A DNA stretch of 37,346 bases from assembly GCA_020723255.1 (NCBI GenBank), contig DYJH01000014.1, forward strand, positions 1-37,346, in the 5' to 3' direction. Shown in pieces: positions 295 to 19,280 of the stretch. The DNA is from Desulfonema limicola. Lineage in GTDB: Bacteria > Desulfobacterota > Desulfobacteria > Desulfobacterales > RPRI01. The notes below the pieces were generated by a model. It saw only the letters and a list, made by a program, of their open reading frames with translations. It was not told the DNA's origin and made no database searches. The position numbers and the translations under genes are program-made. How positions within the stretch are numbered: the first letter of the stretch is position 1; every line of letters begins with the position of its first letter.

Positions 295-376
295 GTAAAA
301 TTTTAAACAAGCTATATCTTTATGAATAATTTATTTCCAGGCTCTAAGGTCAGAGTAGTTCGCCGATAAAATGGTT
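1..376 (-). mobile_element. End of an ISAzo13-type insertion sequence (boundary approximate)
   Basis: The transposase start lies near 294, and such genes usually begin close to the element's end. Between 295 and about 376 there is only AT-rich non-coding DNA, and just beyond it an in-frame HcrA-like remnant begins, so the IS end must lie in or near 340-385. I cannot identify the terminal inverted repeat or a target-site duplication because the other end is outside the window. Confidence 0.4.
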
Positions 377-483
377 GGGAGCAGGGAGATCATGACACCG
401 GCACCGCCTTAGTCAAGATCGGCGAGGACGGCAAGATTTTCCTTTACACCGGATTGCCCGACATGGGCCAGGGGTCCCATACC
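376..483 (+). pseudogene. Remnant of a third HcrA-like molybdopterin subunit
   Basis: About 36 codons read DHDTGTALVKIGEDGKI followed by PDMGQGSHT. This is clearly homologous to the Mo-cofactor region of the two intact catalytic subunits downstream (compare DHDTGSAMVRIGEDGKI and DMGQGSHTTM in the 6406 gene). Homology stops abruptly at about 483, 28 nt before the regulator's stop codon. On the left it extends to about 388 with confidence. The preceding WEQGD could be native or could be a fusion to the upstream NAWEQGD motif of the same family, which would mean an internal deletion. There is no start codon and no downstream continuation, so it is a decayed fragment. It implies that another Hcr-like gene once stood on this side of the regulator. 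Confidence 0.75.
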
Positions 484-2604: not shown

Positions 2605-3585
2605 ATGCGTCTTCCGAGGTTTGAGTATCTGAGACCGTCTTCACTATATGAATGCCTGGAGCTATTGGAAGGATCAGGCCATGAGTCAAGGATTATGGCA
2701 GGCGGAACAGACTTTCTGGTCAGTCTTAAGCAGGGTGTAATTTCTCCTCAAAAGGTCATAAGCATCCGTTCTGTTCCTGAGCTTGGCTCTGTATCTGAAG
2801 ATGCGGAAGGGAATCTTCAGATTGGAGCCTGCGCAAATCTATCGGATCTTGTCAAGCACAGTCTTGTTTTAAAAAAATTACCTGCCCTTCATGATGCCAT
2901 AAGCTCCGTCGGTTCCATGCATATAAGAAATATGGCCACCATTGGAGGAAACCTCTGCCTTGCGCCGCGGTGCTGGTACTATAATCAGTCAAAGCAATGG
3001 CGTCACGCCGTAGAAGGATGCTACAGGACGGGAGGAAAAGTGTGTCATGCAATCAGCGGCTCAAAGCGATGCCATGCGATTAACAGCTCTGATACGGCGC
3101 CGATGCTGATCGCCCTTGGCGCGAGAGTATGTCTTCAAAAGAAAGATAACAAAAGATGGATTTCTCTCCGGGAATTTTTTCGGGATGACGGCAGACATCA
3201 TACGGTTCTGGAAAAGGGAGAAATGCTGACTTCTGTGATTATTCCTTGTGAAACCGGAAAGGATCGCTCAACTTTTATAAAGATACAGCACCGGAAGGGG
3301 CTCGATTTTGCGATAGGCAGTATAGGCGCATCGGTCAAGGGCAACGGCAGGAAAAAGGAAATATCGCTTATCATAAATTCCATAAGTTCCGTTCCACTGT
3401 TTCTTGCCAAGGCAGCGGAGACTGTAATGGAATCGGGATTTAATGAATCAGCCATTGGCAAGGCAGCAGAAATTGCCCGCGGGGAAACCGGAGCCGTTAC
3501 CAATCTTTTTACCTCGGCTGGTTACAAGCGGCAGATCGTTGAGGTGCTTGTAAAACGGGCCTTATCAAGCCTGAAACGGAAGTAG
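2605..3585 (+). CDS. hcrB: 4-hydroxybenzoyl-CoA reductase-type beta subunit (FAD + extra [4Fe-4S])
   Basis: This 326-aa FAD subunit belongs to the xanthine dehydrogenase/oxidase family. FAD-binding motifs are AGGTDFL (~32-38) and TIGGNL (~112-117). Between them and the rest of the domain is the insert that distinguishes 4-hydroxybenzoyl-CoA reductase from other family members. It carries CWYYNQS and Cys123, Cys139, Cys147 and Cys156, with the same spacing as the four ligands of the additional [4Fe-4S] cluster of Thauera HcrB. In that enzyme electrons flow from ferredoxin through this cluster, FAD and [2Fe-2S] to Mo to remove a phenolic hydroxyl. It is the first gene of the long plus-strand run, with a strong GGGAGG RBS. 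The 2Fe-2S and two Mo subunits follow directly. The enzyme class is well supported; the actual substrate is not known. Confidence 0.88.
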   Translation: MRLPRFEYLRPSSLYECLELLEGSGHESRIMAGGTDFLVSLKQGVISPQKVISIRSVPELGSVSEDAEGNLQIGACANLSDLVKHSLVLKKLPALHDAISSVGSMHIRNMATIGGNLCLAPRCWYYNQSKQWRHAVEGCYRTGGKVCHAISGSKRCHAINSSDTAPMLIALGARVCLQKKDNKRWISLREFFRDDGRHHTVLEKGEMLTSVIIPCETGKDRSTFIKIQHRKGLDFAIGSIGASVKGNGRKKEISLIINSISSVPLFLAKAAETVMESGFNESAIGKAAEIARGETGAVTNLFTSAGYKRQIVEVLVKRALSSLKRK

Positions 3586-3603
3586 AAAAAGGAGGAAAAG
3601 GCA

Positions 3604-4080
3604 TTGAAAAGTATCATAACGCTTAATGTAAATGGCGAGGTGCATGAAATTGCTGTGAATCCTTGGCGTACCTTAGTTGATGTACTGCGGGAGGATTTGA
3701 AACTCACGGGGACGAAACGCGCTTGCGAGCAAGGCGCCTGCGGCGTTTGCACGGTAATCATGGACGGTAAAGCCATCCTGTCGTGCCTTGCCCTGGCTGT
3801 GGACTGTGCGGGGCATTCTATTACAACCATTGAATCTTTGGGAAGTTCCGATGGATTGCATCCTTTGCAGCAGTCTTTTATTGATAACGGCGCTGTGCAA
3901 TGCGGATTTTGCACCCCCGGAGTAATAATGACCGCCAAAGCCCTGCTCGATGAAAATCCCAATCCTGACGATACCGCGATCAAGGAGGCTTTAGCCGGGA
4001 CTTATTGCAGGTGCACAGGCCATATCAAGACCGTTGAGGCAGTCAAAAAAGCCGTCCAGGCCGGCAGGGAGGTGAAATAA
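3604..4080 (+). CDS. hcrC: HcrC-like 2x[2Fe-2S] subunit
   Basis: This 158-aa small subunit of a xanthine dehydrogenase-family enzyme has the usual length. The plant-type [2Fe-2S] cluster is bound by C41, C46, C49 and C61 (CEQGACGVC), and the second, all-helical cluster by C100, C103, C135 and C137 (CGFCTPG, CRCTGH). It starts at TTG 3604, about 10 nt after AGGAGG. Its TAA overlaps the ATG of the Mo subunit by one base (TAATG), so the two are translationally coupled. It relays electrons between the FAD/[4Fe-4S] subunit and the molybdenum site. Family certainty is high; the specific Hcr assignment follows from the HcrB neighbour. Confidence 0.9.
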   Translation: MKSIITLNVNGEVHEIAVNPWRTLVDVLREDLKLTGTKRACEQGACGVCTVIMDGKAILSCLALAVDCAGHSITTIESLGSSDGLHPLQQSFIDNGAVQCGFCTPGVIMTAKALLDENPNPDDTAIKEALAGTYCRCTGHIKTVEAVKKAVQAGREVK

Positions 4081-6329
4081 TGCCGCGCAGCAGCAATGAC
4101 TATAGCGTTATAGGAAAAAGGCAGCCCAAGCTTGACGGACCGCTTAAAACCACCGGCCGGTCGCAATTTACTGATGATATAGATTTGCCGGGAATGCTTC
4201 ATGGAAAGATAGTCAGAAGCCCGGTGGCAAGAGGTAAAATTATCAGTATTGATACAACAAAGGCCGAAGGGTTAACCGGTGTAAAAGCAATCGTCACACA
4301 CGAAGACTGCCCGGGGCTTATGGTAAGCCCTGACCGTAAAATTCTGTGCAGCGACAGGGTGAATTTTATAGGCGATGAAGTTGCCGCAGTTGCAGCGGTT
4401 GATGAAGATACGGCGGCAGAAGCGGCGGAGTTGATCAGAGTAGAGTATGAACCGCTTGAAGCTGTCTTTTCCATTGAAGAGACAAGCGCCAAGGGGGCGC
4501 CGGTTATTCATGAGGGATATGAAAAAAACATCATGGATGATTACAATATTGATTTCGGAAATGTGGAGAAGGCATTTGCCGAGGCCGATCATGTGAGAGT
4601 CGGTGAATGTACTTTTAACCCGAATCACAATTGTTTTGCAGAACACCATGTGGTGATTGCTGACTATTCACTGCCCGGAAAACTAAGCATTTGGACTCCC
4701 AATCAGTCGCCTCTTTATATCCAGAAAAGCATGGGGAGCATACTGGGCATTTCGGAAAGCAATGTGAGGGTCTTTAATCTTAACACCGGAGGGGCCTTTT
4801 CCGGCCGGATAGGGCCAAGACAACACAATTTCATAGCGGCGATCCTTTCCAAAAAAGCATCCCGCCCCGTCAAGATAAGATGCGCAGCGGATGAAGAATT
4901 TGTTGTTTACCCCGGCGGCGGATATTTCAAATATATTATCAAAACAGGGGTAATGAATGATGGAACCCTTAAAGCAATGGAAGCAACCTATCTGTTTGAT
5001 TGCGGCGCTTATTGGAATTCTTCATTTAATGTTCTGCTCCGCTATAAATATCATCTGATTCCACAAAATTACCATATGGAAGCAATGCGATGGAAGGAGA
5101 AAACGGTTTATACCAACAATCCTCCGAACATGTATCCGCATGGAGCTGCTTTTCTGCAATTGAAGCTGGCACAGGAGACAGAGCTTGATATTATTGCCGA
5201 AGAAATTGGGATGGACCCGCTCGAACTCAAATTCAAGAACGCCGTTGCCAAAGGTGATACTACCCTGACAAATGTGCATTATACAAGCTGCGGTTTGAAG
5301 GAATCGATCAAAAAAGTTGCTAAAAAGTCATCGTGGAAGAAAAAGTTTAAAAAGCTGCCGCCGTTCAGAGGAATTGGCATTGGCTGCGGAGCCATGAACA
5401 GCGGTGGTCCTGATAAATCCGGAGCTTTAATAAAAATCGGGGAAGACGGGAAGATTTCTCTATTTATCGGCCTGCCCGATATGGGTCAGGGTTCCCATAC
5501 GGCAATGGCCATGATAGCAGCGGAAACTTTAGGAATCGCCGTAGAAGATGTTGAAGTAGTAGCAGGAGATACGAATGCCGCTCCATTTGACATCGGGGCA
5601 TTCGGTCAGCGGGGCACGTTTTTCACAGGGAATGCCGTAAAACTTGCCTGCCTTGACGCCAGAAAACAGCTTGCGGAAACAGCGGCAAAGAAACTTGGCG
5701 TTAAGACTTCTCTTCTGGTCTTCCGCGACGGGAAAGTATTTTACGGAGAGGAGCCGGAAAAAGCAGTACTATTTAAGGATGTAGTTTCCCAAACATTGCA
5801 TTCCGAGGATGGCAAACATATCATGGGAAAGGGGTTTTATCATACACCAACTACCTCCAGGGAGCCTTGGGTTTCAACACTTGCCTATTCCTTTGGCGCT
5901 CAGGTAGCCGAGGTTGAAGTGGATCCCGATACAGGGATCGTGACGCTGCTTAAAGTTACTCACGCCCATGATGTTGGTCGCGCCATTAACCCGCTTGCAA
6001 TCGAAGGCCAGATAGACGGTCAGGTTTTCAGCGGAATGGGCCAGATTCTGTCGGAGGAATGCGTTATGGAAAAGGGCAAGATACTCAATCCAACAATGCT
6101 TAATTACCGCCATGCCCGCTCTTTTGAAGTTCCTGAGATGGAATATATTATTGTTGAGACAAATGATCCCTATGGGCCATACGGAGCTAAAGAAGTGGGA
6201 GAAGGCCCGATTGTCTGCACTATGGCTATCTCCAATGCAGTGAACAACGCCATCGGCAATCCGGTAAGGGAATTTCCTATTACGCCGGAAAGGATTCTGC
6301 AAGCTATCAAAGCAAAAGGGAAGAAATAA
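4080..6329 (+). CDS. HcrA-like molybdopterin catalytic subunit 1
   Basis: This 749-aa large subunit of the xanthine dehydrogenase/HcrA family is full length. The N-terminal a/b-hammerhead begins VIGKRQPKLDG. Mo-cofactor binding segments include GGAFSGRIGPR, DMGQGSHTAM and AFGQRGTFFTG. The C-terminal active-site segment is GAKEVGEGP, with Glu705/Glu708 in the region of the family's catalytic glutamate. In 4-hydroxybenzoyl-CoA reductase this subunit removes the para-hydroxyl group reductively; other members hydroxylate heterocycles or aldehydes. It overlaps the 2Fe-2S gene by one base. It has a close tandem paralog downstream, so the FAD and FeS subunits may serve two alternative catalytic subunits or form a mixed complex. 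Substrate unknown. Confidence 0.88.
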   Translation: MPRSSNDYSVIGKRQPKLDGPLKTTGRSQFTDDIDLPGMLHGKIVRSPVARGKIISIDTTKAEGLTGVKAIVTHEDCPGLMVSPDRKILCSDRVNFIGDEVAAVAAVDEDTAAEAAELIRVEYEPLEAVFSIEETSAKGAPVIHEGYEKNIMDDYNIDFGNVEKAFAEADHVRVGECTFNPNHNCFAEHHVVIADYSLPGKLSIWTPNQSPLYIQKSMGSILGISESNVRVFNLNTGGAFSGRIGPRQHNFIAAILSKKASRPVKIRCAADEEFVVYPGGGYFKYIIKTGVMNDGTLKAMEATYLFDCGAYWNSSFNVLLRYKYHLIPQNYHMEAMRWKEKTVYTNNPPNMYPHGAAFLQLKLAQETELDIIAEEIGMDPLELKFKNAVAKGDTTLTNVHYTSCGLKESIKKVAKKSSWKKKFKKLPPFRGIGIGCGAMNSGGPDKSGALIKIGEDGKISLFIGLPDMGQGSHTAMAMIAAETLGIAVEDVEVVAGDTNAAPFDIGAFGQRGTFFTGNAVKLACLDARKQLAETAAKKLGVKTSLLVFRDGKVFYGEEPEKAVLFKDVVSQTLHSEDGKHIMGKGFYHTPTTSREPWVSTLAYSFGAQVAEVEVDPDTGIVTLLKVTHAHDVGRAINPLAIEGQIDGQVFSGMGQILSEECVMEKGKILNPTMLNYRHARSFEVPEMEYIIVETNDPYGPYGAKEVGEGPIVCTMAISNAVNNAIGNPVREFPITPERILQAIKAKGKK

Positions 6330-6405
6330 TAAAAGCAAAAGGATTATTTTTAACCGTAAATCCTGAGAAGCAGGCGGATGAAGCTCGCTGCATGGAGGTG
6401 AAATA

Positions 6406-8688
6406 GTGCCGGACAGAAGCAATGGCTATAGCGTTATAGGTAAAAGGCAGCCCAAGCTTGACGGACCCCTCAAAACCACAGGCCGGTCACAGTTTACCGA
6501 TGACATTGCTTTACCGGGGATGCTTTACGGCAAGATAGTCAGAAGCCCCGTGGCCCGGGGGAGGATCATAAGCATTGATACCGGCAAGGCAGAAAGGTTA
6601 GCAGGTGTTAAGGCTGTCATTACTTATCAGGACTGCCCGGGTCTTATGGTTGGCCCTGATGAGCAATTGCTTTGCCGGGAATTTGTCAATTACATAGGTG
6701 CAGAGGTGGCTGCCGTGGCAGCGGTTGATGAAGACACGGCAGCCGAAGCGGCGGAACTCATCAGCGTTGAATATGAAAAGCTGGAGGCGGTCTTTTCCCT
6801 GGAAAAGGCCCTTGCTGAGGGGGCGCCGGTAATTTGTGAGGGTCGCAAAAACAACTGCGCGGATGAGTTCGAAATCGATGTCGGCGATGTGGATAAGGCT
6901 TTTTCGGAAGCTGAACATGTGCGGGTGGACGAGTACAAGCTGAACCATAATCACAATTGTTATGCCGAGCATCACGTTGTGGTGGCCGATCATTCACTGC
7001 CGGGAAAACTGAGCGTCTGGACGCCCAATCAATCGCCGCTTTTTGTGCAGAAGGGGTTGGCCGCACTTCTTGGCTTTTCGGTGAGTGATGTACGAATCTT
7101 CAATCTTAACACCGGAGGTTCCTTTTCCAGCAGGGGCGGACCCCGTAATCACCATTATATTGCAGCGCTTCTTTCCCGAAAAGCAATGCGGCCCGTAAAA
7201 ATTTTTTGTGCGGCGGATGAGGAGTTCCTTATGCCCCGGGATAGTGGCGAGCATAAGTATACAGTGAAAATAGGGGTGATGAAAAACGGGAAACTCAAGG
7301 CCATTGAGGTAGTTTCTTTGTTTGACTGCGGCGCCCATTGGAACTCCATATTAACCGGCGTCTTTCGGGGTTTTTCCAACGTGCTGGCTATGAATTACCG
7401 ATACGATGCGATGCGGCGGCTGGGAAAGATTGTCTATACCAATAATCCCCCGAATATTGGACATCATGGCGGAGAAATTCGCCAATTGAATTTGGTAGCA
7501 GAAGCCGAGCTTGACCTGATTGCTCAGGATATCGGAATCGACCCGTTGGCGTTAAGGTATCAGAACGCATGGGAACAGGGTGATACCACCATTGCGGGTG
7601 TCCATTACGGAAGCTGCGGCCTGAAAGAATGCATGGAAAAAGCGGCTAAAAGCTCGGGCTGGAAGAAAAAGCAGGGGAAACTCCCTCCCTATAAAGGAAT
7701 TGGCATTGGCTGCGGGGGGATATTTTCCGGCGGTAAGTCCGGGATGAAGGACCACGACACCGGCAGCGCCATGGTTAGGATCGGAGAGGACGGCAAGATA
7801 TTTCTTGATATTGGATTTTCTGATATGGGCCAGGGGTCCCATACGACCATGGCCATGATTGCCGCGGAGACACTGGGAATAGCGGCAGGAGACGTCACGG
7901 TGATCGCCGGGGATACTAATTTGGTTCCTTATGATGTTACGGGAAGCAGCCAAAGGGGAACGTTTGTTGTGGGTAACGCCGTGAAGGCGGCCTGTCTTGA
8001 TGCCAGGAACCAGCTTGCGGAGGGGGCCTCAAAAAAACTTGGCGTGGCCGCTGCACAGCTCGTATTCCGTGATAGAAAGGTATTTCCTCGCAAGACACCG
8101 GCTAAGGCCATATCTTTTCAAAGCGTGGTATCCTCCCTGCTTCATTCCGATGAAGGACGGCATGTCATGGGAAGAGGCTTCTATAACTCGCCCACGAAAT
8201 CCCGGGAAATCTGGGTATCATCCCTTGCCTTTTCCTTTGGCGCTCAGATTGCCGAAGTAGAAGTGAACCCGGAAACAGGAGTCGTTAAGCTGATCAGGAT
8301 GACCGTTGCCCATGATGTGGGTCGCGTTATCAACCCATTAGGAATGGAGGGCCAGTTGGACTCGCAGGTGTTTGGAGGCATGGGGCAGCTTCTGACAGAA
8401 GAATGTATCATGGAGAAGGGGCTCATACTTAATCCCTCACCTCTCGACTACAAACTGCCCCGTCCCTTTGAAGTACCGGAAGTAGAGCGTATTTTCGTGG
8501 AATCGAATGATCCCGATGGACCCTTTGGAGCAAAAGAGGGGGGCGAGGGACCGATAGTATGCACAGTAGCTATTGCCAATGCTGTGAGCAATGCGGTCGG
8601 TTATCCGATCAAAGAATATCCTATTACCCCGGAAAGAGTTCTGCATGCTCTCAGGGAAAAGGAAAATAAGCAGGAAACTAAGGCCTGA
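6406..8688 (+). CDS. HcrA-like molybdopterin catalytic subunit 2
   Basis: This 760-aa protein is a close paralog of the preceding subunit, sharing GKRQPKLDGPLKTTGRSQFTDD near the start and most Mo-cofactor motifs (GGSFSSRGGPR, DMGQGSHTTM, GAKEGGEGP). The GTG start follows GGAGGTGAAATA. The 76-nt gap to subunit 1 ends in a copy of the GGAGGTGAAATA-type start context that precedes subunit 1, as expected for a tandem duplication. Differences are concentrated around residues 300-360 and 440-460, which flank the substrate pocket in this family, so the two may differ in substrate. An extra remnant of the same family lies at the left edge. It is probably cytoplasmic and probably assembles with the HcrB/HcrC-like subunits. 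Confidence 0.87.
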   Translation: MPDRSNGYSVIGKRQPKLDGPLKTTGRSQFTDDIALPGMLYGKIVRSPVARGRIISIDTGKAERLAGVKAVITYQDCPGLMVGPDEQLLCREFVNYIGAEVAAVAAVDEDTAAEAAELISVEYEKLEAVFSLEKALAEGAPVICEGRKNNCADEFEIDVGDVDKAFSEAEHVRVDEYKLNHNHNCYAEHHVVVADHSLPGKLSVWTPNQSPLFVQKGLAALLGFSVSDVRIFNLNTGGSFSSRGGPRNHHYIAALLSRKAMRPVKIFCAADEEFLMPRDSGEHKYTVKIGVMKNGKLKAIEVVSLFDCGAHWNSILTGVFRGFSNVLAMNYRYDAMRRLGKIVYTNNPPNIGHHGGEIRQLNLVAEAELDLIAQDIGIDPLALRYQNAWEQGDTTIAGVHYGSCGLKECMEKAAKSSGWKKKQGKLPPYKGIGIGCGGIFSGGKSGMKDHDTGSAMVRIGEDGKIFLDIGFSDMGQGSHTTMAMIAAETLGIAAGDVTVIAGDTNLVPYDVTGSSQRGTFVVGNAVKAACLDARNQLAEGASKKLGVAAAQLVFRDRKVFPRKTPAKAISFQSVVSSLLHSDEGRHVMGRGFYNSPTKSREIWVSSLAFSFGAQIAEVEVNPETGVVKLIRMTVAHDVGRVINPLGMEGQLDSQVFGGMGQLLTEECIMEKGLILNPSPLDYKLPRPFEVPEVERIFVESNDPDGPFGAKEGGEGPIVCTVAIANAVSNAVGYPIKEYPITPERVLHALREKENKQETKA

Positions 8689-8723: not shown

Positions 8724-10049
8724 ATGGAACATAATATACAACCTCCATCATTGTCGGAAGGTTTTGAACAAGGTGTAAAGCACTTTGTGGAAGAGTGCAC
8801 ACTTTGTGGCCAATGCCTCGAGGCCTGCCCTTCATTTAACGATCCCAAGCTTGAGCTGATTGATAAAAATCCGGCAGAAGTTATTGAAAAAATTGTCGAA
8901 TTGTTAAAAGGGGGACCGTCATCGGAAGAGGCTTATAAGATGGGATATGGCTGCTTGATGGGGTGCACAAATATATGCAAACCGGCCTGCCCGAAGGGGC
9001 TGAATATGCAGCAGGCTTTTATGCTTGCCGGACACCGGCTTCGGGCAGCGGGTGAAGGCTTGCCGCCACTTGCCTTTATTCACCTGGCCGAACACCGCTA
9101 CAATTTCGGCCATGTTTTCGGTGACCTGCAGATGAAAAAATCAGAAGTCCCCTGGCTTACTGAAATACCGTCAGACCCGGCAGTTGTCGATATAGTTCTT
9201 TTTACCAGTTGTGTCGGTCGGGGCTTTCCTAACCTGGTACTTGAAGCTATGGATATCCTGAGTAGTATGAAAATTAATTTTGTAGCGATTGGCGCACGTG
9301 ATCTCTGTTGCGGAGGAACACCTCTTCTTTTGGGAAATATGAAAGACGTCTCAAGAGTTTCCGAAAAATATATTTCCACCATGTCCAGGTTCGGCGCCAA
9401 AAAAGTTGTCGCACTTTGCCCGGCCTGTAGTGTCGTAGGTAATGATATGCTTTCAAAATTCATCCAGGTTCCATTTGAAACCATTCATATAACGGAGTTT
9501 TTAGCCGACAACATAGACAAGCTACACTTCACTCAGCCCCTCAATAAGACGGTCACAATTCACGATGCCTGCAGCCAGCGACAGCGGGGTAGCTGGGGTA
9601 TATCACGCAAACTGCTTGAAGCTATACCGGGATTGACAATAGTAGAGATGGAACACAGCAGGGAGAATAGCCTCTGTTGCGGTGCTCAGGCCAACGCCAA
9701 CTTTCCCGGTTTGATGATTGAAAGGAACATAGCCCGGTTGAATGAAGCGATGGCTGTGCGCGCTGATATCATGACAACGATCTGTCCCGGTTGCCAGCTT
9801 GCTTTCTGCGGCTATGAAAATCACTATCCTTTTGAGATCAAACATACCATCAGTCTTGTTGCCGAAGCCATGGGCATTCATCACGAGGATAAAGTAAAGA
9901 AATATCTTTTAACCGGAGACCCGGAGAAAGTGCTGGAAGCAGCCAGCGAGTATGTCGAAGCCAGCGACCTGAGCCTGATTGAATTTCAGCAGATTCTGCC
10001 CCGCTATTTTCAAACCTTGTGCGTGAGTCGCGGTTTCCCTATCCGCTGA
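8724..10049 (+). CDS. (Fe-S)-binding CCG-domain oxidoreductase (HdrD/GlcF-like)
   Basis: This 441-aa protein has an N-terminal ferredoxin-like part: C25-x2-C28-x2-C31-x3-C35, then C77, C81, C85 and C89 in GYGCLMGCTNICKPACP. Two complete CCG domains follow (C163, C195-C196, C232/C235; C283, C318-C319, C354/C357), as in the HdrD, GlpC and GlcF families. Such proteins pass electrons between ferredoxin, quinone or thiol partners and a dehydrogenase. It lies 35 nt behind the Hcr-like subunits, so a likely role is electron donor or acceptor for that complex. No membrane subunit lies next to it. Family assignment is strong; the partner is inferred from position. Confidence 0.85.
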   Translation: MEHNIQPPSLSEGFEQGVKHFVEECTLCGQCLEACPSFNDPKLELIDKNPAEVIEKIVELLKGGPSSEEAYKMGYGCLMGCTNICKPACPKGLNMQQAFMLAGHRLRAAGEGLPPLAFIHLAEHRYNFGHVFGDLQMKKSEVPWLTEIPSDPAVVDIVLFTSCVGRGFPNLVLEAMDILSSMKINFVAIGARDLCCGGTPLLLGNMKDVSRVSEKYISTMSRFGAKKVVALCPACSVVGNDMLSKFIQVPFETIHITEFLADNIDKLHFTQPLNKTVTIHDACSQRQRGSWGISRKLLEAIPGLTIVEMEHSRENSLCCGAQANANFPGLMIERNIARLNEAMAVRADIMTTICPGCQLAFCGYENHYPFEIKHTISLVAEAMGIHHEDKVKKYLLTGDPEKVLEAASEYVEASDLSLIEFQQILPRYFQTLCVSRGFPIR

Positions 10050-10150: not shown

Positions 10151-11683
10151 ATGAAAGCAAAACGGATAAGAGCTTTGGTTTGGCTGGGGTGGTCATTTAT
10201 TGTGATAGCTGTTTTGCTTTTTAGTTCCGGTACGGTTCAGGCCGGAACTAAAAAGATGAAACCGCCGGTTACAAAAACAGGGGCAGAGATTGCCAAATAC
10301 GACGCCATTGTTGTTGGTGCAGGATATAGCGGCCTCATTTCCGGAGCAATTCTGGCAAAAAACGGGCTCAAAATTTTGGTCGTAGAGCAGGCGGACCAGA
10401 TAGGGGGGCGTCTGGGAGCAGTCAATTATAACGGATACTGGCTTGAATGGGGGCCCAGCAATGCCAAGGATTTCGAGGATAATTTTGTGATCATTACCGA
10501 TAAAGGACAATACGGTTTTAAAGCAGCCAAAGAAGCCGGAGCCGATGTTGCCTGGGTGGGGCCTATCGATCCTCTTGTGCTGATGCATAATGTGTCCGAT
10601 GGCAAGGTTGTGGTTTTGAATGCTGATGCGGAGGGAGGGAAAAAATTCTATACCGAAGTGCTTAAACTCACTCAGGAGCAAACAAACAAGGTTACGGCTA
10701 CGTTAAAGAGTTTGGCAGCGGAAGATCCAGAAAAATGGATAGATGTTCCCATGAAAGATTGGCTGGCCACCATAAAGGACAGGGATGAAGCATTTGACAA
10801 AGCCATAAATTGGCTGGCGATAGTACACCTTGCCCTGCCTCTGGAGGAGACCTCAACCGGCCGCTGGATTCAGATGTTTAAGAATCCACATCGACTATAC
10901 AGGATCAATGATTCCAAGGTTGGTGGTCTGCAAGGATTGGCCGAAGCCTATGCCAGGGTCATAAGAAAGAACGGCGGTGAAATTAAGCTGGGTCTCGAAC
11001 CCGTTGAGATCACGACAGAAGGCAATAAAATAACGGGTATTGTAGTCCGGGATAAAATTAATGTTATTCAGGAGTTTCAAGTTCCTGTGATTGTTTATGC
11101 CGAGCCTGTCTGGGATATATTCAGTATTTTCAATGAAAGTCATTTCCCCAAGCAGATGGTAGAAAACGCACGAAAGCTTAAAACCGGGTACAAAGGCGAC
11201 TTCTGGTGTAAAAATATCGGCGTCAGCCGTCTGCCCACCATAAGAGCCACAGGAAAACCCGATCAGTACATTGGCTATAACCAGGTGCTCTTTAATAAAA
11301 CCATAGGGTGGAGTATCCCTTCCCTAAGCTCAAAGAAAGCAGCGCCGAAGGGCAAGCATGTTTTGTGTCTTAATGGAACTACTGAAATTCCTGGCAATTT
11401 TGCATCTGCAAAAGCCGATGCGGACGCCCTGATGAAATACATGCGCCGCTATTACTCGGATCTCGATGAAATTATCGAATGGGAAAATTACCAGTGGCCC
11501 AAGGTGTGGGGAACCGGCAACACCTGGCTGCCAATGCACCGCAGCCCGATAGAAGCGCCAGGGGTTGAAGGGCTCTATTTTGTAGGCAATACTGTCGAAG
11601 CCGATGGAACATTTGCCGATATCGGCGCAAATTCAGCTATGCAGGCTAGTCAACTTATATTACAGAAACGAATTAAAAAGTAA
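10151..11683 (+). CDS. FAD-dependent oxidoreductase (phytoene-desaturase/amine-oxidase fold) with signal peptide
   Basis: This 510-aa flavoprotein starts at ATG 10151 with a strong AAAGGAG RBS. Residues 1-31 look like a Sec signal (KAKRIR, a hydrophobic core, then a VQAG cleavage-like site). The Rossmann motif VVGAGYSG lies at ~55-61 with E79 for ribose binding, then QIGGR (~83-87). The C-terminal FAD segment is GLYFVGNTVEADG. This is the fold of phytoene desaturases and amine oxidases, which oxidise C-C or C-N bonds. A Sec-type leader is unusual for a protein that binds FAD non-covalently, and no twin-arginine motif is seen. It may be a membrane-anchored or periplasmic dehydrogenase. It precedes an MFS transporter, which fits handling of an imported substrate. 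Substrate unknown. Confidence 0.75.
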   Translation: MKAKRIRALVWLGWSFIVIAVLLFSSGTVQAGTKKMKPPVTKTGAEIAKYDAIVVGAGYSGLISGAILAKNGLKILVVEQADQIGGRLGAVNYNGYWLEWGPSNAKDFEDNFVIITDKGQYGFKAAKEAGADVAWVGPIDPLVLMHNVSDGKVVVLNADAEGGKKFYTEVLKLTQEQTNKVTATLKSLAAEDPEKWIDVPMKDWLATIKDRDEAFDKAINWLAIVHLALPLEETSTGRWIQMFKNPHRLYRINDSKVGGLQGLAEAYARVIRKNGGEIKLGLEPVEITTEGNKITGIVVRDKINVIQEFQVPVIVYAEPVWDIFSIFNESHFPKQMVENARKLKTGYKGDFWCKNIGVSRLPTIRATGKPDQYIGYNQVLFNKTIGWSIPSLSSKKAAPKGKHVLCLNGTTEIPGNFASAKADADALMKYMRRYYSDLDEIIEWENYQWPKVWGTGNTWLPMHRSPIEAPGVEGLYFVGNTVEADGTFADIGANSAMQASQLILQKRIKK

Positions 11684-11701
11684 TTGATAAGGAGGAACAC
11701 T

Positions 11702-13000
11702 TTGGCTCAAAATAAAATATTTTACGGCTGGATTCTGGTTCCCGTTTTGGGGATAATTTATCTGATAGATGCCGGCTTCCCATTCATCGGGGCAAGTGTT
11801 ATGAATACTTACATGGCCGAATCCCTTCATTTAGGGCGAGGCACTCTTGGACTCGGGTTCACCGTTTGCGGGCTCTTGAGCGGGCTAATCTCACCGATTA
11901 TTGGTTATAGCATAGGTAAAAAAGGGATCAGGTTTACAATGCTTTTAGGTTGTCTGCTGCTGATAGCCGGAGCTTTCTTAATGGCCACGGTGGTTACAAA
12001 AGGCTGGCATTATATTGCAGTTTTTGGTGTGATTGTGGGGATCGGCTCCGGATTTGGCGGCTTGATACCTGTACAGGCCGGAGTTACCCTCTGGTTCAGG
12101 AAAAAAAAGGCGCTGGCCATGTCCTTTGCTGTTACAATAGGCAGTTTGGGGGGATTAATTGCTCCACCCTTATTAAATAAGATCATTTCTTCTTTTAACG
12201 GTAATTGGCAGGTTGCCTGGTTTTTCATTACCGGCTTGCTGGTTCTCTCCTTTGTTTTGATGTTTTTCTTTGTTAAGAACAAGCCCTCAGATATTGGGTT
12301 ACTCCAGGATGGCGCAGATGAAAATGATGAATCTGGCCCGGATGCCGGTGTTAAAAAACCTGGAGCCGGAAAAGTATTTTGCAGCACCGAAGAATGGAAA
12401 ACGGCGGATGCGATAAAAACCCTTACTTTCTGGATGTTATTTATCTCTTCCTTAGCCTTTGTGGGGCCGATGATGATCTTTATTGCCCACGCCGTCATTT
12501 ATTTGCGGGATATGGGGCATCCGGCCGGTATATCGGCCATGGCTATGAGCTATTACATGCTTTTCAGTCTTGGCGGAAGGATGCTCGGCGGAGTTCTGGC
12601 AGACCGGTTTGAACCTCGTTATATATGGGCTGTAGGACTTCTGCTCGAGACGGTAGGCATACTTTGCTTTCTTGATGCCAGGAGCGTGTCCAATATCTAT
12701 CTGTTTTCCATTTTTGTCGGAGTTGGAGTCGGTGCGGCTTCGATCTGCTGGCCAACATTGATCGGTAATTATTTCGGTTCGAATTCATTTGCCGCCATTA
12801 TGGGAATACTCTTTCCTATCGTTCAGCTCTTTGGAGCTTCCGCCCCGTATTTAGCCGGACTGGTATATGATGCCCAAAAAAGTTATTACAGCGTGTTTGC
12901 CGGTTCAGCGGCTTTGGCATTCGTTTCCAGTATTATTATATTTTTTACCAAACCTCCAAAAACATCGGCATATGGAAGTAAACCCGTATCTGTTCCGTAA
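11702..13000 (+). CDS. MFS transporter (oxalate/formate-antiporter-like, OFA type)
   Basis: This 432-aa membrane protein has about 12 predicted helices in two halves, separated by a charged, likely cytoplasmic loop (DENDESGPDAG...). The helix 2-3 loop contains GYSIGKKGIR, and the matching loop in the second half contains GRMLGGVLADRFEPR, both versions of MFS motif A. The start is taken as TTG 11702, six bases after GGAGG; the track start at 11684 includes the RBS in the coding region. It follows the FAD protein by 18 nt. The likely role is uptake of the pathway substrate or exchange of a carboxylate product. The specificity cannot be read from sequence. Confidence 0.85.
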   Translation: MAQNKIFYGWILVPVLGIIYLIDAGFPFIGASVMNTYMAESLHLGRGTLGLGFTVCGLLSGLISPIIGYSIGKKGIRFTMLLGCLLLIAGAFLMATVVTKGWHYIAVFGVIVGIGSGFGGLIPVQAGVTLWFRKKKALAMSFAVTIGSLGGLIAPPLLNKIISSFNGNWQVAWFFITGLLVLSFVLMFFFVKNKPSDIGLLQDGADENDESGPDAGVKKPGAGKVFCSTEEWKTADAIKTLTFWMLFISSLAFVGPMMIFIAHAVIYLRDMGHPAGISAMAMSYYMLFSLGGRMLGGVLADRFEPRYIWAVGLLLETVGILCFLDARSVSNIYLFSIFVGVGVGAASICWPTLIGNYFGSNSFAAIMGILFPIVQLFGASAPYLAGLVYDAQKSYYSVFAGSAALAFVSSIIIFFTKPPKTSAYGSKPVSVP

Positions 13001-13064
13001 GAATGTGAATAAATATTTCACAGCGTGAAAATAAAAAATTATTATACAATAGGAGGGTGAAGCA

Positions 13065-14123
13065 ATGAAAACGGAAAGAAAAGGCATCAGCGATGTGCAA
13101 CTGCATGAGGACGCAAGCCATGTTACGGATCTGCCTCCCGGTAAAGATTTTATGGAGATTAACGGCACGCTCTTTATGGGCGAAGCCCAGGGATACGACA
13201 TGTGTCTTGTAACAATTAACTGGCATGTGGGAGGCGGAAAAAAAGGAAAATGGATGGTAGACAGGGCAAATATCGGACATACTACTTTTCAGATGATTCC
13301 ACATGACGAAAGATACCGGATGCATGATAACGACTATATCGGCAACCGTCAGGACGCAAGAGAGTGGCCGGACGATATTCAGATTACGCAGGAAAGCGAC
13401 AGGGTAGTATGGAAAAACGGAAACCGTATATTTATAAACCATCCTCCCTACTGGGAAGTAAAGGGCGAGCATATGGGGGTGGAGTGCGACCTTATAGCGG
13501 GGGGAATGGGAAAAGCCACCCGTGTATATGGGCCATTGTCGGATTTGAAGAAAACCCTATGGGCAGGCTATGAGCAGCAATGCTGGGCGGAAGGCACCAT
13601 AACAGTGGGAGGCAAGAAATATACCTTCGAGAAGGCATATGCCGCTCACGATTTAATTACCTTCGGCGAGACCTATGACCATATGAAAAATATGGTCGAT
13701 CCATACTACTACATATGGGCTATCGATGACACGATCCAAACTTATATCTGGAGGCAGCGTGGTTCGGGAATAGAATATAGTCGTGTTTATGTGGATGGTC
13801 AAGAAACTCCCTTCGGAAAAGGTGAGATCACCATAGACGAACTGGAATGGTGGCTTGATCCCAAGACAGGCATGCAAATTCCAATCCGTTGGCATGTCAA
13901 CCTGAACTCGGCTGCTGGCGTTGTTGATATGAACATGGTTGCCGGCGGACGGGGTTCTTTTTGCGTCATGACACGTAACGGATATACGATTCGTCACGGA
14001 TTTTTGGTACGTTCCAATGGTCATGCTTTTTTTCCTGATGGACGAAATATTCCTATCAAAGATATGATGACCTATTTGGAATGGGGCCGGAGCGCAATGC
14101 CCTTGGCGAGCGGAGCTCCCTAA
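13065..14123 (+). CDS. Lipocalin-like (AttH/CrtC-type?) protein of unknown function
   Basis: This 352-aa protein has no signal peptide. It starts at ATG 13065 with AGGAGGGTGA. It is rich in Gly and aromatic residues in a beta-strand pattern. A central stretch, GYEQ...AEGTITVGGKKYTFEKAY-AAHDL, resembles the second lipocalin-like domain of AttH/hydroxyneurosporene-synthase proteins, where a G-x-V-x-V-x-G-K-x-Y strand leads to a conserved His/Asp. That assignment is tentative. A collapsed copy occurs at 18902, and each copy directly precedes a molybdo-enzyme gene (34-36 nt). This pairing suggests a linked function, such as binding a hydrophobic substrate or isomerising a cyclic intermediate. No catalytic role can be demonstrated. 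Confidence 0.6.
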   Translation: MKTERKGISDVQLHEDASHVTDLPPGKDFMEINGTLFMGEAQGYDMCLVTINWHVGGGKKGKWMVDRANIGHTTFQMIPHDERYRMHDNDYIGNRQDAREWPDDIQITQESDRVVWKNGNRIFINHPPYWEVKGEHMGVECDLIAGGMGKATRVYGPLSDLKKTLWAGYEQQCWAEGTITVGGKKYTFEKAYAAHDLITFGETYDHMKNMVDPYYYIWAIDDTIQTYIWRQRGSGIEYSRVYVDGQETPFGKGEITIDELEWWLDPKTGMQIPIRWHVNLNSAAGVVDMNMVAGGRGSFCVMTRNGYTIRHGFLVRSNGHAFFPDGRNIPIKDMMTYLEWGRSAMPLASGAP

Positions 14124-14157
14124 TCTACTGGCTGTCGAATTCCAGAAGGAATTTTGT

Positions 14158-16374
14158 ATGGATGAGATGAGTAAAAGTAAAGTAGTGCGCACGGCGTGTG
14201 CTCTGGGTGATGGCGTAACATGCGGTCTGGCAGTAGAGGTGATCAACGGTGTTATGACTAAAGTCAGTGCTGCTGATATGCCCAACCCGGCAGATCGGGG
14301 TGCCTGCAGTAAAGGACTTGCCTCAATGGAGCTGGTTTATCATAAAGATCGCCTCCGTTATCCCCTTAAACGCACAGGAAAACGGGGAGATGGCAAGTGG
14401 GAACGCATTTCCTGGGAGGAAGCTCTGGATGACATTGCGTGCAAACTAAAAGAAATTGCAAAAAAATACGAATCAAGATCAATTGCCTGGATCACTAGAG
14501 GTTCTCCGGCAGAGCTCAAAGGAGGAGGGTATATACGGCTGGCAAGTCTGATCAAGGGGAGCAGGGTTAGTATTATTGGTTTTGGTGACTCGGCTGCCCC
14601 CTGTGCCGATCTTGCTAACTTTGGATGTATTTTCGGAGACGCCCATCTTAGCCGTATAGAAGAACCTGAACTTACAATCGTTTGGGGGCAAAATCCTGAT
14701 GTAACCGATTGGAGGCGTATGCACCGGATCATGCAGTCCAGGAAAAAGGGCTGCAAAGTGATAGTTATCGATCCTCGCCGCACGAGCACGGCTTCCAAAA
14801 TTGCTGATGAGTATATCCCCATAAGACCAGGAACCGATGCCGCGCTGGCTCTGGCAATGATTCACGTAGTTTTGGAACAAGAACGTCAGGATAAACGGTT
14901 TATAACCGATAATACCGTTGGCCCTTTGCTGGTGAGGAGTGATAATGGTTTTCTGTTGCGGGAGAGCGACCTGACAGAGCTTGGAAGTTGGCAGCGATTC
15001 ATGGTTTTTGATGCAAACACCGAGACCGTGCAGCCCTGCGATGCTCCTGGCATCATGCCTTCGATTTACGGCTGCTGTTCCATCGCTGGTATTGAATGCC
15101 GACCGGCATATCAGCTGTTGGCAGACATGGTTAAAGAATATACACCGGCAAGGGTGTCTGAAATCACTGGTATTCCACATGATGTCATTATACGCCTGGC
15201 AACAGCCTATGGTGTCAAAAAACCATCGTCTATCCATCGAGGTTGGGGATTCCAACGGACTTTTCACGGCGATCTGACGTGCCGAGCGATAAATACTTTA
15301 GCTGCGATCACCGGCAATATTAATCTACATATACCATCACGTTTTACTCTTAATATGGATTTTTCTGTCCCGGGCGGGCCCTATACGAATATACCGATAA
15401 TGTCTCTCTATAATCAGATTGCCAAACAGAAGCCCTTTCCTATTAAGGCAATATGGTTTTCCGCTAAAAACTTTGTCAGTCAGTTGCCAAACCAGAATAG
15501 GATCGTGAACGAGCTATTTCCTATGCTGGACCTTATAGTGGTTTCCGATATCTTTATGACAGCAACGGCGAAATATGCTGATTATGTATTACCGGCAAGT
15601 TCACCGTTCGAATATACAGATTTGCTTTGCGGCCTGGTTAATTGGACCAACTATCTGCATTTGCAGCAGAAAGTAATAGAGCCTTTATACGAAACCAAGC
15701 CAGATTTTCAAATAGCAGCCGAGTTGGGCCGGAAGATGGGATTTGGGGAGTATTTTGACAAGACTGAGGAGGAATATTTAGAAGGGATCCTGACTTCGGA
15801 TCATCCGACTATGGAAGGCATATCATTGGAGAGGTTGAAAGCAGGTCCTGTGGCGGAAAGACTAATTGACAGCCCACAGAAATTTGCTACTTCCACCGGC
15901 AGAATCGAATTCTATGTGGAAAAGCTGAAAGAGTTTGGCCAGGAACTGCCGGTTTACCTTGAACCGGTGGAGAGCGCTCGCAGTGCGAAAGCAAAAGTAT
16001 ATCCCCTTTCTCTTCTCACTTCCCATCCACGCTATCGGGTGCATACTGCAATGGCCAATTGCCCCAGTCTTCTGAAAAATGATCCCGAACCCACGCTGCA
16101 GATCAATCCGGAAGATGCCAGAAAGCGGAATATAAAGGATGGAGATGTTGTTCGTGTTTTCAACAACCTGGGGCAGGTCAAGGTAAAAGCGTTACTAAGT
16201 GAGGATATAAAGCCCGGGGTGGTTAATATCGATCAAGGCTGGTGGCCTGAACACTATATTGAAGGCCATATAAACGAATTAACCCACGATATGATAAATC
16301 AGGCGCAAGCGGCTATTTTCGAACCCAATGCTGCCTTTTGCGATGTCCTTGTGGAAGTGGAAAAGATGCTATGA
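14158..16374 (+). CDS. DMSO-reductase-family molybdo/tungsto-enzyme A (Asp-substituted FeS motif)
   Basis: This 738-aa molybdopterin oxidoreductase is full length. The N-terminal Fe-S region reads C14-x3-D18-x3-C22-x27-C50, so Asp replaces one of the four usual Cys. Typical family segments follow: LRYPLKR, KWERISWEEALDDIA, VWGQNPDVTDWRR, VIDPRRT and IRPGTDAALALAM. The C-terminal molybdopterin-dinucleotide-binding domain contains TSHPRYRVHT and INPEDARKR. A Cys in GDSAAPCADL (~157) is a candidate metal ligand. No dedicated electron-transfer subunit is adjacent, as in monomeric acetylene hydratase and unlike most respiratory relatives. No Tat signal is present, so it is cytoplasmic. It could be a redox enzyme using free ferredoxin or a non-redox hydratase/transhydroxylase-like enzyme. 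Closest relatives in the window are C and D. Confidence 0.85.
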   Translation: MDEMSKSKVVRTACALGDGVTCGLAVEVINGVMTKVSAADMPNPADRGACSKGLASMELVYHKDRLRYPLKRTGKRGDGKWERISWEEALDDIACKLKEIAKKYESRSIAWITRGSPAELKGGGYIRLASLIKGSRVSIIGFGDSAAPCADLANFGCIFGDAHLSRIEEPELTIVWGQNPDVTDWRRMHRIMQSRKKGCKVIVIDPRRTSTASKIADEYIPIRPGTDAALALAMIHVVLEQERQDKRFITDNTVGPLLVRSDNGFLLRESDLTELGSWQRFMVFDANTETVQPCDAPGIMPSIYGCCSIAGIECRPAYQLLADMVKEYTPARVSEITGIPHDVIIRLATAYGVKKPSSIHRGWGFQRTFHGDLTCRAINTLAAITGNINLHIPSRFTLNMDFSVPGGPYTNIPIMSLYNQIAKQKPFPIKAIWFSAKNFVSQLPNQNRIVNELFPMLDLIVVSDIFMTATAKYADYVLPASSPFEYTDLLCGLVNWTNYLHLQQKVIEPLYETKPDFQIAAELGRKMGFGEYFDKTEEEYLEGILTSDHPTMEGISLERLKAGPVAERLIDSPQKFATSTGRIEFYVEKLKEFGQELPVYLEPVESARSAKAKVYPLSLLTSHPRYRVHTAMANCPSLLKNDPEPTLQINPEDARKRNIKDGDVVRVFNNLGQVKVKALLSEDIKPGVVNIDQGWWPEHYIEGHINELTHDMINQAQAAIFEPNAAFCDVLVEVEKML

Positions 16375-16473
16375 AATGATTTCAAGCTTGAATGCACAAG
16401 AGCAAAGAGGACAGAGCATTGTCATGAATAAATATTCTAATGCTTGTTACAATTATCCTGAAAGCGAACAGTG

Positions 16474-18849
16474 ATGGCAAAGAAAACAGTGATAACTTCT
16501 TGTGCAGGTGAAGGATGTCACGGTGGGTGTCTGCACAAGGCTCATGTTGAAGACGGGAAGATCCTAAAGATAAAACGTCTAATTTATCCTGATGGTCAAC
16601 AGGATACTATATGTATGAAAGGCTTGGCTGGGGCCCGTTTCCCTTACAATCACGACAGATTAAAGTATCCTCTCAAGCGGGCAGGCAAGAGAGGGGAGGG
16701 GAAATGGGAAAGAATCACATGGGAGCAGGCGCTTGATGAGATAGCCGATAAGTTGAAGAAGATCAGGGCGGAACATGGGCCACAGGCGATCGGTATGATG
16801 CCTTGTCCAAATAGCATGTCTCCATTTAATGGAATCCAACATATTCTGGGAAAAAGGTTTCTGCATCTTATGCAGGCTGTCAACTTGGATAATACATTGG
16901 GGATAGACTCCAACTCCTATTTTGCCGATTACTTCACCATGGGTTCAATAATCGGCGCTTACCAGGATCCTGAATCTCTTTTAGAGGGTAATACAAGTTA
17001 TATGATCGTCTGGGGAACCAATCCGGCGGAAATGGCTCCCAGGTGTTGGGAATGTATCCGGAAAGCCCAGAAGAAAGGAGCAAAATTGGTCGATATCGGT
17101 TTGCTCTTCGACCGGACGGCAAAGGCGTCCGATTGGTGGATTCCGGTTCAGGCAGGCAGCGACGGAGCGATAGCCCTATCCATGATTAATATCATTATTA
17201 GCGAAAAACTCTATGATGAAAACTATATCATGAAGTATACCAATGGTTCTTTCCTTGTTCGGACGGATAATGGAAAATTGTTGCGGGAGAGCGATTTATC
17301 CTCTGGAGGATCAGAGAAGAAATATCTCGTTTGGGATACGATCTCGGATTGTGTCCGATCCATCGAACCACGGCTAAGTAATCCAGAGGGAATAAAACCA
17401 GCATTGATGGGCACTTATAGACTGGCCATGATCGAGTGCAAGCCGGCCTTCCAACTATTGTCGGAGCTGGCCGCCGTTTATCCGCCAGAAGAGGCGGCAG
17501 CCATAGCAAATGTTTCCGCCGCTATAATAAAGACTCTGGCACAAGAATACGCGGCAGCAAAACCGGCTGCGATTTTGGTGGACCATGGTTTGCGCTATCT
17601 AAACAGCGGTAATACCCACCGTGCAATAAACACCTTAGGAGCTATAACCGGCAATACAGGACAATTAGGTGGAGGGACAGTGCGCGGGTTGTGGGCATCG
17701 CCAAAAAGGCTTGTGAGACCTAACCTTTTTTCAATTTTGCATGCCACCGATGCGCGAGCCGCCTCTGCCCCTTTATCGCATATTCTCCAATCCATAATTA
17801 ATGGCAATAGTGATTCAATCAAGGCGTGGATAAATTACGGCTGGAACTTTCTGCATACCTATCCTAATCCGAGGCGGTGGATCGAAGAGATATTGCCAAA
17901 TATTGATCTTTTAGTAGTTAACGATATCTTTATGACTGCAACTGCGGAATATGGTGACTACATTCTGCCGGACTGCACTCTCTTTGAACGGGAAGATGTG
18001 GTCATTGGCAATAAAGGGCATATCGTTTACCTGGAGAAGGCTATCGACCCTCTCTATGAATGCAGGCCGCCTCTGTATTTTTGGAGTGAGCTTGCTAAAA
18101 GAGTAGGTTTGGGAGAGTATTTTGACAAGACATTTGAAGAATGGCTTTCATTATGGCTGGATTCCCAAGATCCATCGATTGCAGGAATACAGCCGCCACT
18201 AAGTGTAGAACGGCTCAAAAGCGAGAAGATTGTCCGGGCAAATGTATCAGAATGTCCCTCCAAGCCATGGTTTTCCACTAAATTTATGACTCCTTCTGGA
18301 AGACTGGAGTTTTATAACGAAGATCTCTTGCAGGCAGGTGATGCTTTGCCGGTATTTCGCGAGCAGATGGAGAGCCCCCGCTCGGCTCTGGCTGAGAAGT
18401 ATCCCCTGGTATTTAACACGGCAAACAACAGACACTTCATGCACTCTTTATTTGCCAACGATTCAGATATGCTGGTTCGGTACCTGAAGGAGCCTTATCT
18501 CAGTATTAACAATATTGATGCGCGAAAACGAAATATTATGAACGGCGACGTGGTAAGCGTTTATAACGACCGGGGTAGTTTTAAAGTGAAAGCACGAATC
18601 TGTGATGACGTTCCTGCGGGAGTGGTCAATATTCCCCATGGATGGTGGCCGAAGCAATTTATTGAGGGCCATCTTCAGGATATCATCCCTTCTCTTGCTA
18701 CTCCGAGCATAAGGGATGAGGCCCGGGAAGTCTATTGGTCAGTGGCCCGTGAGCGAGAAATGATCAGTCCTATACCTATACTTGACAGCCAATTCGCCTA
18801 TTCCCCGGATACCATCTTCGATTGCCTTTGCGAAGTCAAAAAGTGCTGA
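16474..18849 (+). CDS. DMSO-reductase-family molybdo/tungsto-enzyme B (complete 4-Cys motif)
   Basis: This 791-aa protein starts at ATG 16474 (GTG 16471 is immediately in front); the RBS is weak. It belongs to the same superfamily as A, C and D but is more divergent. It keeps all four cluster ligands (C10-x4-C15-x3-C19-x27-C47). Conserved segments include LKYPLKRAGKRGEGKWERI, VWGTNPAEMAPRCWE and AGSDGAIALSM. The region aligned with the candidate metal-ligand Cys of the paralogs reads DSNSYFADYF and lacks Cys, so the metal ligand may be Ser or absent. The C-terminal domain has NNRHFMHS and GDVVSVYNDRG. It is inserted between the two lipocalin/molybdo-enzyme pairs. Cytoplasmic (no leader). Reaction unknown. 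Confidence 0.84.
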   Translation: MAKKTVITSCAGEGCHGGCLHKAHVEDGKILKIKRLIYPDGQQDTICMKGLAGARFPYNHDRLKYPLKRAGKRGEGKWERITWEQALDEIADKLKKIRAEHGPQAIGMMPCPNSMSPFNGIQHILGKRFLHLMQAVNLDNTLGIDSNSYFADYFTMGSIIGAYQDPESLLEGNTSYMIVWGTNPAEMAPRCWECIRKAQKKGAKLVDIGLLFDRTAKASDWWIPVQAGSDGAIALSMINIIISEKLYDENYIMKYTNGSFLVRTDNGKLLRESDLSSGGSEKKYLVWDTISDCVRSIEPRLSNPEGIKPALMGTYRLAMIECKPAFQLLSELAAVYPPEEAAAIANVSAAIIKTLAQEYAAAKPAAILVDHGLRYLNSGNTHRAINTLGAITGNTGQLGGGTVRGLWASPKRLVRPNLFSILHATDARAASAPLSHILQSIINGNSDSIKAWINYGWNFLHTYPNPRRWIEEILPNIDLLVVNDIFMTATAEYGDYILPDCTLFEREDVVIGNKGHIVYLEKAIDPLYECRPPLYFWSELAKRVGLGEYFDKTFEEWLSLWLDSQDPSIAGIQPPLSVERLKSEKIVRANVSECPSKPWFSTKFMTPSGRLEFYNEDLLQAGDALPVFREQMESPRSALAEKYPLVFNTANNRHFMHSLFANDSDMLVRYLKEPYLSINNIDARKRNIMNGDVVSVYNDRGSFKVKARICDDVPAGVVNIPHGWWPKQFIEGHLQDIIPSLATPSIRDEAREVYWSVAREREMISPIPILDSQFAYSPDTIFDCLCEVKKC

Positions 18850-18901
18850 AGATATGCCATGAGGTCCGAAGGATATTTGGGAATTAAATAAGGGTGACGC
18901 A

Positions 18902-19245: not shown

Positions 19246-19280
19246 TCCCCTGATTGTCCTATTTTTGGAGGTATCTTGTT

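What the first reader, a model, noticed from the sequence alone, without database searches (positions are those of the whole stretch)
2605..8688. HBCR-specific [4Fe-4S] insert combined with two tandem catalytic subunits
The FAD subunit has Cys123/139/147/156 in the insert diagnostic of 4-hydroxybenzoyl-CoA reductase, which allows ferredoxin-driven reductive dehydroxylation. One FAD and one 2Fe-2S gene are followed by two different Mo subunits (749 and 760 aa), with differences clustered near the substrate pocket. This suggests one electron-delivery module serving two dehydroxylases, or a mixed complex.
Basis: partly seen in the sequence, partly recalled or inferred. Interest (0 to 1): 0.62.

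Follow-up and report, generated by a model that had tools for sequence, protein, structure and literature searches.

The report
Two catalytic subunits sharing one module
[quoted passage not shown] it is not a classical 4-hydroxybenzoyl-CoA reductase but belongs to an unnamed branch with an unusual active site, in which such pairs arose at least twice.

Summary
The window encodes an FAD subunit with C123-x15-C139-x7-C147-x8-C156 (the spacing of Thauera HcrB), one 2x[2Fe-2S] subunit and two full-length Mo subunits (LSU1 749 aa, LSU2 760 aa; 66% identical). Both are under purifying selection (dN/dS about 0.09) and have syntenic orthologues in two congeneric genomes. Their fixed differences are enriched at pocket loops.

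The HBCR reading is only partly right. The four-Cys insert is not HBCR-specific: related inserts occur in aldehyde oxidases (E. coli PaoB) and in many other FAD subunits here. All subunits score far below HBCR family cut-offs. Both LSUs fall in a separate clade lacking two near-universal active-site residues (Arg880-equivalent to His, 19 of 19; Gly799-equivalent to Ser/Cys, 19 of 19).

New: 8 of 10 genomes with this clade have at least two such LSUs; in six, one FAD and one 2Fe-2S gene lie with the pair. Pairs arose at least twice. In other families one partner has the catalytic Glu replaced by Gln, and those operons carry YqeB/YqeC/XdhC, markers of selenium-dependent molybdenum hydroxylases. 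Best reading: an uncharacterised, possibly Se-dependent XO-family enzyme with interchangeable catalytic subunits; substrate and direction unknown.

The parts
2605..3585 (+). FAD subunit with four-Cys [4Fe-4S]-type insert (C123, C139, C147, C156)
   Evidence: TIGR03195 215.5 bits against cut-off 404.55
2971..3072 (+). codons 123-156 of the FAD subunit: the cysteine insert
   Evidence: spacing identical to Thauera HcrB
3604..4080 (+). 2x[2Fe-2S] small subunit
   Evidence: cysteine pattern
4080..6329 (+). LSU1, Mo catalytic subunit, 749 aa; catalytic Glu708 kept; GGAFSGR loop; His354 at the Arg880-equivalent position
6406..8688 (+). LSU2, Mo catalytic subunit, 760 aa; catalytic Glu kept; GGSFSSR loop; His at the Arg880-equivalent position
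8724..10049 (+). Fer4_8 plus CCG-domain (HdrD/GlpC-like) protein, candidate electron-transfer partner; 91% identical orthologue in G072, not found at this place in G165
10151..34765 (+). Co-directional downstream genes: CrtI-like flavoprotein, MFS transporter, lipocalin-like, four DMSO-reductase-family proteins, DapB-like dehydrogenase, EthD, CCG protein, SDR, Rv3169-family, two APH/EcKL-type kinases, AFOR-like protein, tannase/feruloyl-esterase family
   Evidence: part of it syntenic in G072 and G165
376..483 (+). 31-36 codon relic of a third LSU of the same clade (77% identical to LSU2 over 31 aa), truncated on both sides

Best explanation
The locus encodes a xanthine-oxidase-family molybdo-iron-sulphur flavoenzyme of an unnamed clade with a remodelled Mo site. 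One FAD/[4Fe-4S] subunit and one 2x[2Fe-2S] subunit form a shared electron-transfer module. Either of two catalytic subunits with different pockets, LSU1 or LSU2, docks on it, so one module serves two related substrates. Electrons pass between Mo, two [2Fe-2S], FAD and the [4Fe-4S] cluster on one side and a low-potential carrier (ferredoxin or the CCG/Fer4_8 protein encoded next door) on the other. Because clade members in other families sit in operons with YqeB, YqeC, XdhC and MocA, the Mo ligand is plausibly selenium rather than sulphur. The likely setting is anaerobic turnover of phenolic or other aromatic compounds. Shown by sequence: gene content, cysteines, clade signature, selection on both LSUs, recurrence of pairing. 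Inferred: cofactor, sharing of the module, substrate class, electron carrier. Not determined: reduction or oxidation.
For: Cysteine spacing as in HcrB. One FAD and one 2Fe-2S gene with two LSUs in the window genus (G000, G072, G165) and in three genomes of other families (G676, G462, G657). Both LSUs selected, dN/dS about 0.1. Fixed differences enriched at pocket loops and in 268-400 while residues 1-60 stay 87% identical. Clade signature: His at the Arg880 column in 11/11 against Arg in 56/58 others, Ser/Cys at the Gly799 column in 11/11 against Gly in 58/58, also in the eight further members read later. YqeB 346-354 bits (cut-off 220), YqeC 198-208 bits (cut-off 73) and XdhC-type genes next to clade members; YqeB also in the window's genome at C90 (338 bits). 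LSU:FAD:FeS counts of 22:10:12 in the window's genome and 10:5:6 in G165. No CoA ligase among the window genes scanned.
Against: No biochemical data. The two LSUs could form separate complexes with electron-transfer subunits from other loci, or sit together in one complex. In the window's genus YqeB is not next to the LSU genes, selD and YqeC were not searched there, and YqeB also occurs in 6 of 18 genomes without the clade. Some of the excess of LSUs over FAD genes may come from the fragmented 87% complete assembly. The AU test does not exclude a sister relation to Thauera HcrA. Tannase and other downstream genes are not all conserved in relatives.
Confidence: 0.5

Rival explanations
1. Mixed complex: LSU1 and LSU2 sit together in one assembly (alpha-alpha' with shared beta and gamma subunits), as a catalytic pair or a catalytic/regulatory pair.
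For: Pairs of this clade arose at least twice: AU tests reject grouping LSU1 or LSU2 with either of the other families' paralogue types. In those families one partner has the catalytic Glu as Gln together with a Cys in the Mo loop in 5 of 5 cases, the other keeps Glu in 5 of 5; Glu to Gln abolishes activity in mouse AOX1 (PMC2671166).
Against: Both window LSUs keep the Glu and differ at pocket loops, which fits two separate activities as well. G042 has one LSU only and the own paralogue cluster C86 has an LSU1-type subunit alone.
Confidence: 0.25
2. A true 4-hydroxybenzoyl-CoA reductase (HcrABC) with an extra alpha paralogue, driven by ferredoxin.
For: Best NCBIfam hit of FAD subunit and both LSUs is an HBCR model; best PDB hit 1rm6 for the FAD subunit and LSU1; identical cysteine spacing.
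Against: 611 and 577 bits against 994.55, 215.5 against 404.55, 168 against 257.8; about 34% identity to HcrA (same clade); outside the HcrA clade; HcrA GGGFGAR and MRGHG loops replaced; no CoA ligase in the window.
Confidence: 0.08
3. An oxidative molybdenum hydroxylase or aldehyde oxidoreductase that hands electrons outward through the [4Fe-4S] cluster, as PaoABC does.
For: Aldehyde oxidases carry a related insert; known selenium-dependent molybdenum hydroxylases are hydroxylases, some reversible (PMC11448449).
Against: HcrB-type and not PaoB-type spacing; FAD subunit outside the PaoB group; anaerobic gene neighbourhood.
Confidence: 0.25
4. A plain recent duplication in which one LSU is redundant or decaying.
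For: Relics of further LSU copies exist in the window (376-483) and elsewhere in the genome.
Against: dN/dS 0.08-0.12 for both, conserved order in three genomes; the paralogues are only 66% identical.
Confidence: 0.03

Closest known systems
4-Hydroxybenzoyl-CoA reductase HcrABC of Thauera aromatica (PDB 1rm6)
   Same: Three-subunit make-up, FAD subunit insert with identical cysteine spacing, XO-family LSU with catalytic Glu
   Different: About 34% LSU identity, scores far below equivalog cut-offs, two LSUs, Mo-loop Gly to Ser and Arg880-equivalent to His, no CoA ligase nearby
Urolithin C dehydroxylase Ucdh of Enterocloster bolteae (PMC12771579)
   Same: XO-family enzyme distantly related to HBCR (32.7% identity to it) that acts on a free phenolic compound
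   Different: One LSU; sequence not available here, so no direct comparison; insert not checked
Selenium-dependent molybdenum hydroxylases (nicotinate and xanthine dehydrogenases of clostridia; PMC2276186, PMC11448449)
   Same: Clade members in other families lie next to YqeB, YqeC, XdhC and MocA
   Different: In the window's genus these genes are not adjacent; selenium not shown; known SDMHs are not reported as LSU pairs in what I read
PaoABC aldehyde oxidoreductase of E. coli
   Same: FAD subunit with a four-Cys insert
   Different: Different spacing, separate FAD-subunit group, one LSU, aldehyde oxidation

Membership tests
4-Hydroxybenzoyl-CoA reductase (HcrABC) | Four-Cys [4Fe-4S] insert in FAD subunit | tested here: met
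   C123/C139/C147/C156, spacing identical to 1rm6_B; the feature is not specific to HBCR
4-Hydroxybenzoyl-CoA reductase (HcrABC) | Scores above NCBIfam equivalog cut-offs TIGR03194/03195/03193 | tested here: not met
   610.9 and 577.3 / 994.55; 215.5 / 404.55; 167.8 / 257.8
4-Hydroxybenzoyl-CoA reductase (HcrABC) | LSU inside the HcrA clade | tested here: inconclusive
   Outside in the best tree; AU p 0.072 for window clade plus HcrA
4-Hydroxybenzoyl-CoA reductase (HcrABC) | HcrA-type Mo-site loops (GGGFGAR, MRGHG) | tested here: not met
   GGAFSGR/GGSFSSR and PHGAA/HHGGE
4-Hydroxybenzoyl-CoA reductase (HcrABC) | Reduction of 4-hydroxybenzoyl-CoA with reduced ferredoxin | not testable with these tools
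   Needs enzyme assay
Selenium-dependent molybdenum hydroxylase | Accessory genes YqeB/YqeC beside the LSU | tested here: inconclusive
   YqeB beside clade members in G676, G462, G747, G765, G695, YqeC confirmed in three of them; not beside the window LSUs
Selenium-dependent molybdenum hydroxylase | YqeB in the same genome | tested here: met
   G000:C90:3520-4281, 337.8 bits over cut-off 220
Selenium-dependent molybdenum hydroxylase | selD in the same genome | not tested
Selenium-dependent molybdenum hydroxylase | Labile selenium ligand on Mo | not testable with these tools
   Needs purified enzyme
PaoABC aldehyde oxidoreductase | PaoB-type insert spacing and FAD-subunit grouping | tested here: not met
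   Different spacing; PaoB and 5y6q group apart
Xanthine oxidase family (broad) | MoCoBD, FAD_binding_5 and Fer2_2 domains, catalytic Glu | tested here: met

The most novel reading that the evidence does not exclude
This clade is a new kind of XO-family enzyme that works as an obligate pair of unlike catalytic subunits on one electron module. In several families one partner is a Glu-intact catalyst and the other a Gln/Cys variant; in the window's genus a pair with two intact sites evolved anew. With a selenium-dependent Mo site, the two Mo centres would exchange electrons internally, for example to couple dehydroxylation at one site with hydroxylation at the other.
Probability: 0.12. Interest if true: 0.8.

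Novelty: new variant of a known kind. Interest (0 to 1): 0.5.

Why it matters
Only two XO-family reductive dehydroxylases are described as such in the literature read here (HBCR and Ucdh, PMC12771579). A clade with two near-invariant active-site residues replaced, repeated pairing of catalytic subunits and a link to selenium cofactor genes gives a concrete place to look for new chemistry. It also warns that the four-Cys insert should not be used alone to annotate HBCR.

Tried and rejected
Insert as HBCR marker: rejected. Redundant or decaying second copy: rejected. Single ancient duplication giving LSU1/LSU2 and the E/Q types: rejected by AU tests. A second AU test (window clade plus HcrA plus the insertless group) did not finish. 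The Ucdh source paper PMC11760930 is not held. The plasmid search gave only relatives of at most 38% identity. Rfam gave no match, and promoter or terminator patterns are at chance level. Structure prediction was not run because no coordinates are returned for pocket mapping.

Full report
Observation. The FAD subunit has Cys at 123, 139, 147 and 156, spaced exactly as in Thauera HcrB. The 2Fe-2S subunit keeps both cluster motifs. LSU1 and LSU2 are 66% identical full-length Mo subunits.

Is it more than chance? Both LSUs, the FAD and the 2Fe-2S gene have syntenic orthologues in two congeneric genomes, G072 (the contig of L033, JAHIFE010000096; matched by length 135,729) and G165. dN/dS is 0.08-0.12 for both LSUs. 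Fixed differences between LSU1-type and LSU2-type are enriched at pocket loops (17/38 against 169/711, p 0.006; 15 of 748 circular shifts) and strongest in residues 268-400. The pocket columns were chosen by motif mapping from memory of bovine xanthine oxidase numbering, so the p value is indicative.

Is it HBCR? The HBCR models are the best hits for LSUs and FAD subunit but every subunit is far under the curated cut-offs. LSU identity to HcrA in this clade is about 34%, lower than for most other XO-family paralogues of the same genome. In a 57-row tree the LSUs form an 11-row clade outside the group with Thauera HcrA; holding them together with HcrA is not rejected (AU p 0.072). The FAD tree puts all insert-bearing subunits, HcrB-like and PaoB-like, on one side of one branch (SH-aLRT 95), with PaoB and the 5y6q aldehyde oxidase among them. 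The LSUs closest to HcrA in the order (about 900 bits) have FAD subunits without any insert. So the insert marks a broad class, and a preprint likewise calls a four-Cys motif characteristic of PaoABC (PMC13404670).

What sets the clade apart. At the column of bovine Arg880 all 11 members have His (Arg in 56 of 58 others); at the column of Gly799, in the loop next to Mo, they have Ser or Cys (Gly in 58 of 58 others). The catalytic Glu is kept in both window LSUs. Eight more members from other families show the same signature.

Pairs. Of ten genomes found with the clade, eight have two or three such LSUs. One FAD and one 2Fe-2S gene lie with two LSUs in G000, G072, G165 (FAD-FeS-LSU-LSU), G676 (FAD-FeS-LSU-LSU), G462 and G657 (LSU-FAD-FeS-LSU). 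In the other families the two LSUs are old paralogues: five of five of one type have Gln in place of the catalytic Glu and Cys in the Mo loop, five of five of the other keep Glu. In mouse AOX1 the same Glu-to-Gln change gives an inactive enzyme (PMC2671166). AU tests reject any grouping of LSU1 or LSU2 with either type (p below 1e-4), so pairing arose at least twice. More than one LSU per module also occurs in unrelated clusters of the same genome (C129, C196), and the genome has 22 LSU, 10 FAD and 12 FeS matches.

Selenium link. In G676, G462, G747, G765 and G695 the LSU cluster is accompanied by YqeB (346-354 bits where scanned, cut-off 220), with XdhC-type genes, YqeC (198-208 bits, cut-off 73) and, in L035, a MocA-like gene just under its cut-off; in L035 YqeB is fused to a ModC-like domain. 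These are proposed markers of selenium-dependent molybdenum hydroxylases (PMC2276186), and yqeB is needed for good growth of C. difficile on xanthine and urate (PMC11448449). The window's genome has YqeB on another contig. Eight of ten clade genomes have YqeB over the cut-off against 6 of 18 others, a sample that was not random. For the window's own enzyme the selenium link is therefore an inference.

Mechanism. Inferred path: low-potential carrier, [4Fe-4S], FAD, two [2Fe-2S], Mo, or the reverse. The adjacent CCG/Fer4_8 protein is a candidate carrier, but G165 lacks it at this place. The neighbourhood (DMSO-reductase-family proteins, AFOR-like protein, tannase-family protein, and in relatives two HGD-D dehydratase-family proteins) suggests anaerobic aromatic or polyphenol metabolism. 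There is no CoA ligase among the window genes, which speaks mildly against a CoA-thioester substrate.

Verdict. Real, conserved and selected; misnamed as HBCR. A new variant of the XO family with paired catalytic subunits.

Noticed in passing
window 376-483: Relic of a third LSU of the same clade (77% identical to LSU2 over 31 aa; 81% DNA identity over 95 bases), cut on both sides, close to the contig's left end.
   Followed up: partly
window 511-2172 (-) and 35062-36687 (-): Two 60% identical regulators (HTH_3 N-terminus, zinc-ribbon-like and HTH_23 C-terminus) flank the gene run on both sides; similar ones lie beside LSU clusters on C86, C1 and in G072 and G165.
   Followed up: partly
window 14158-27484: Four DMSO-reductase-family proteins in one co-directional run (73-36% identical), without obvious beta or gamma subunits; acetylene hydratase and type II enzymes among the nearest solved structures.
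   Followed up: partly
L033 5591-8188; also L097 and L098: Two HGD-D (2-hydroxyacyl-CoA dehydratase / benzoyl-CoA reductase family) genes directly upstream of the FAD gene in G072, with same-sized genes at this place in G165, absent from this place in the window.
   Followed up: partly
L111 11305-13584 and L112 8475-10763: A related LSU group that has lost both the Gln767-equivalent (Gly) and the catalytic Glu (Met), yet sits with FAD and FeS genes.
   Followed up: no
L035 617-2188: Fusion of a ModC-like ATPase with YqeB in a molybdenum-selenium type operon.
   Followed up: no
G657:C342:10105-10850: YqeB appears split over three open frames, a pseudogene or poor sequence.
   Followed up: no
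window 28671-29750 and 31903-33048: Two APH/EcKL-type small-molecule kinases beside the AFOR-like and tannase-family genes.
   Followed up: no
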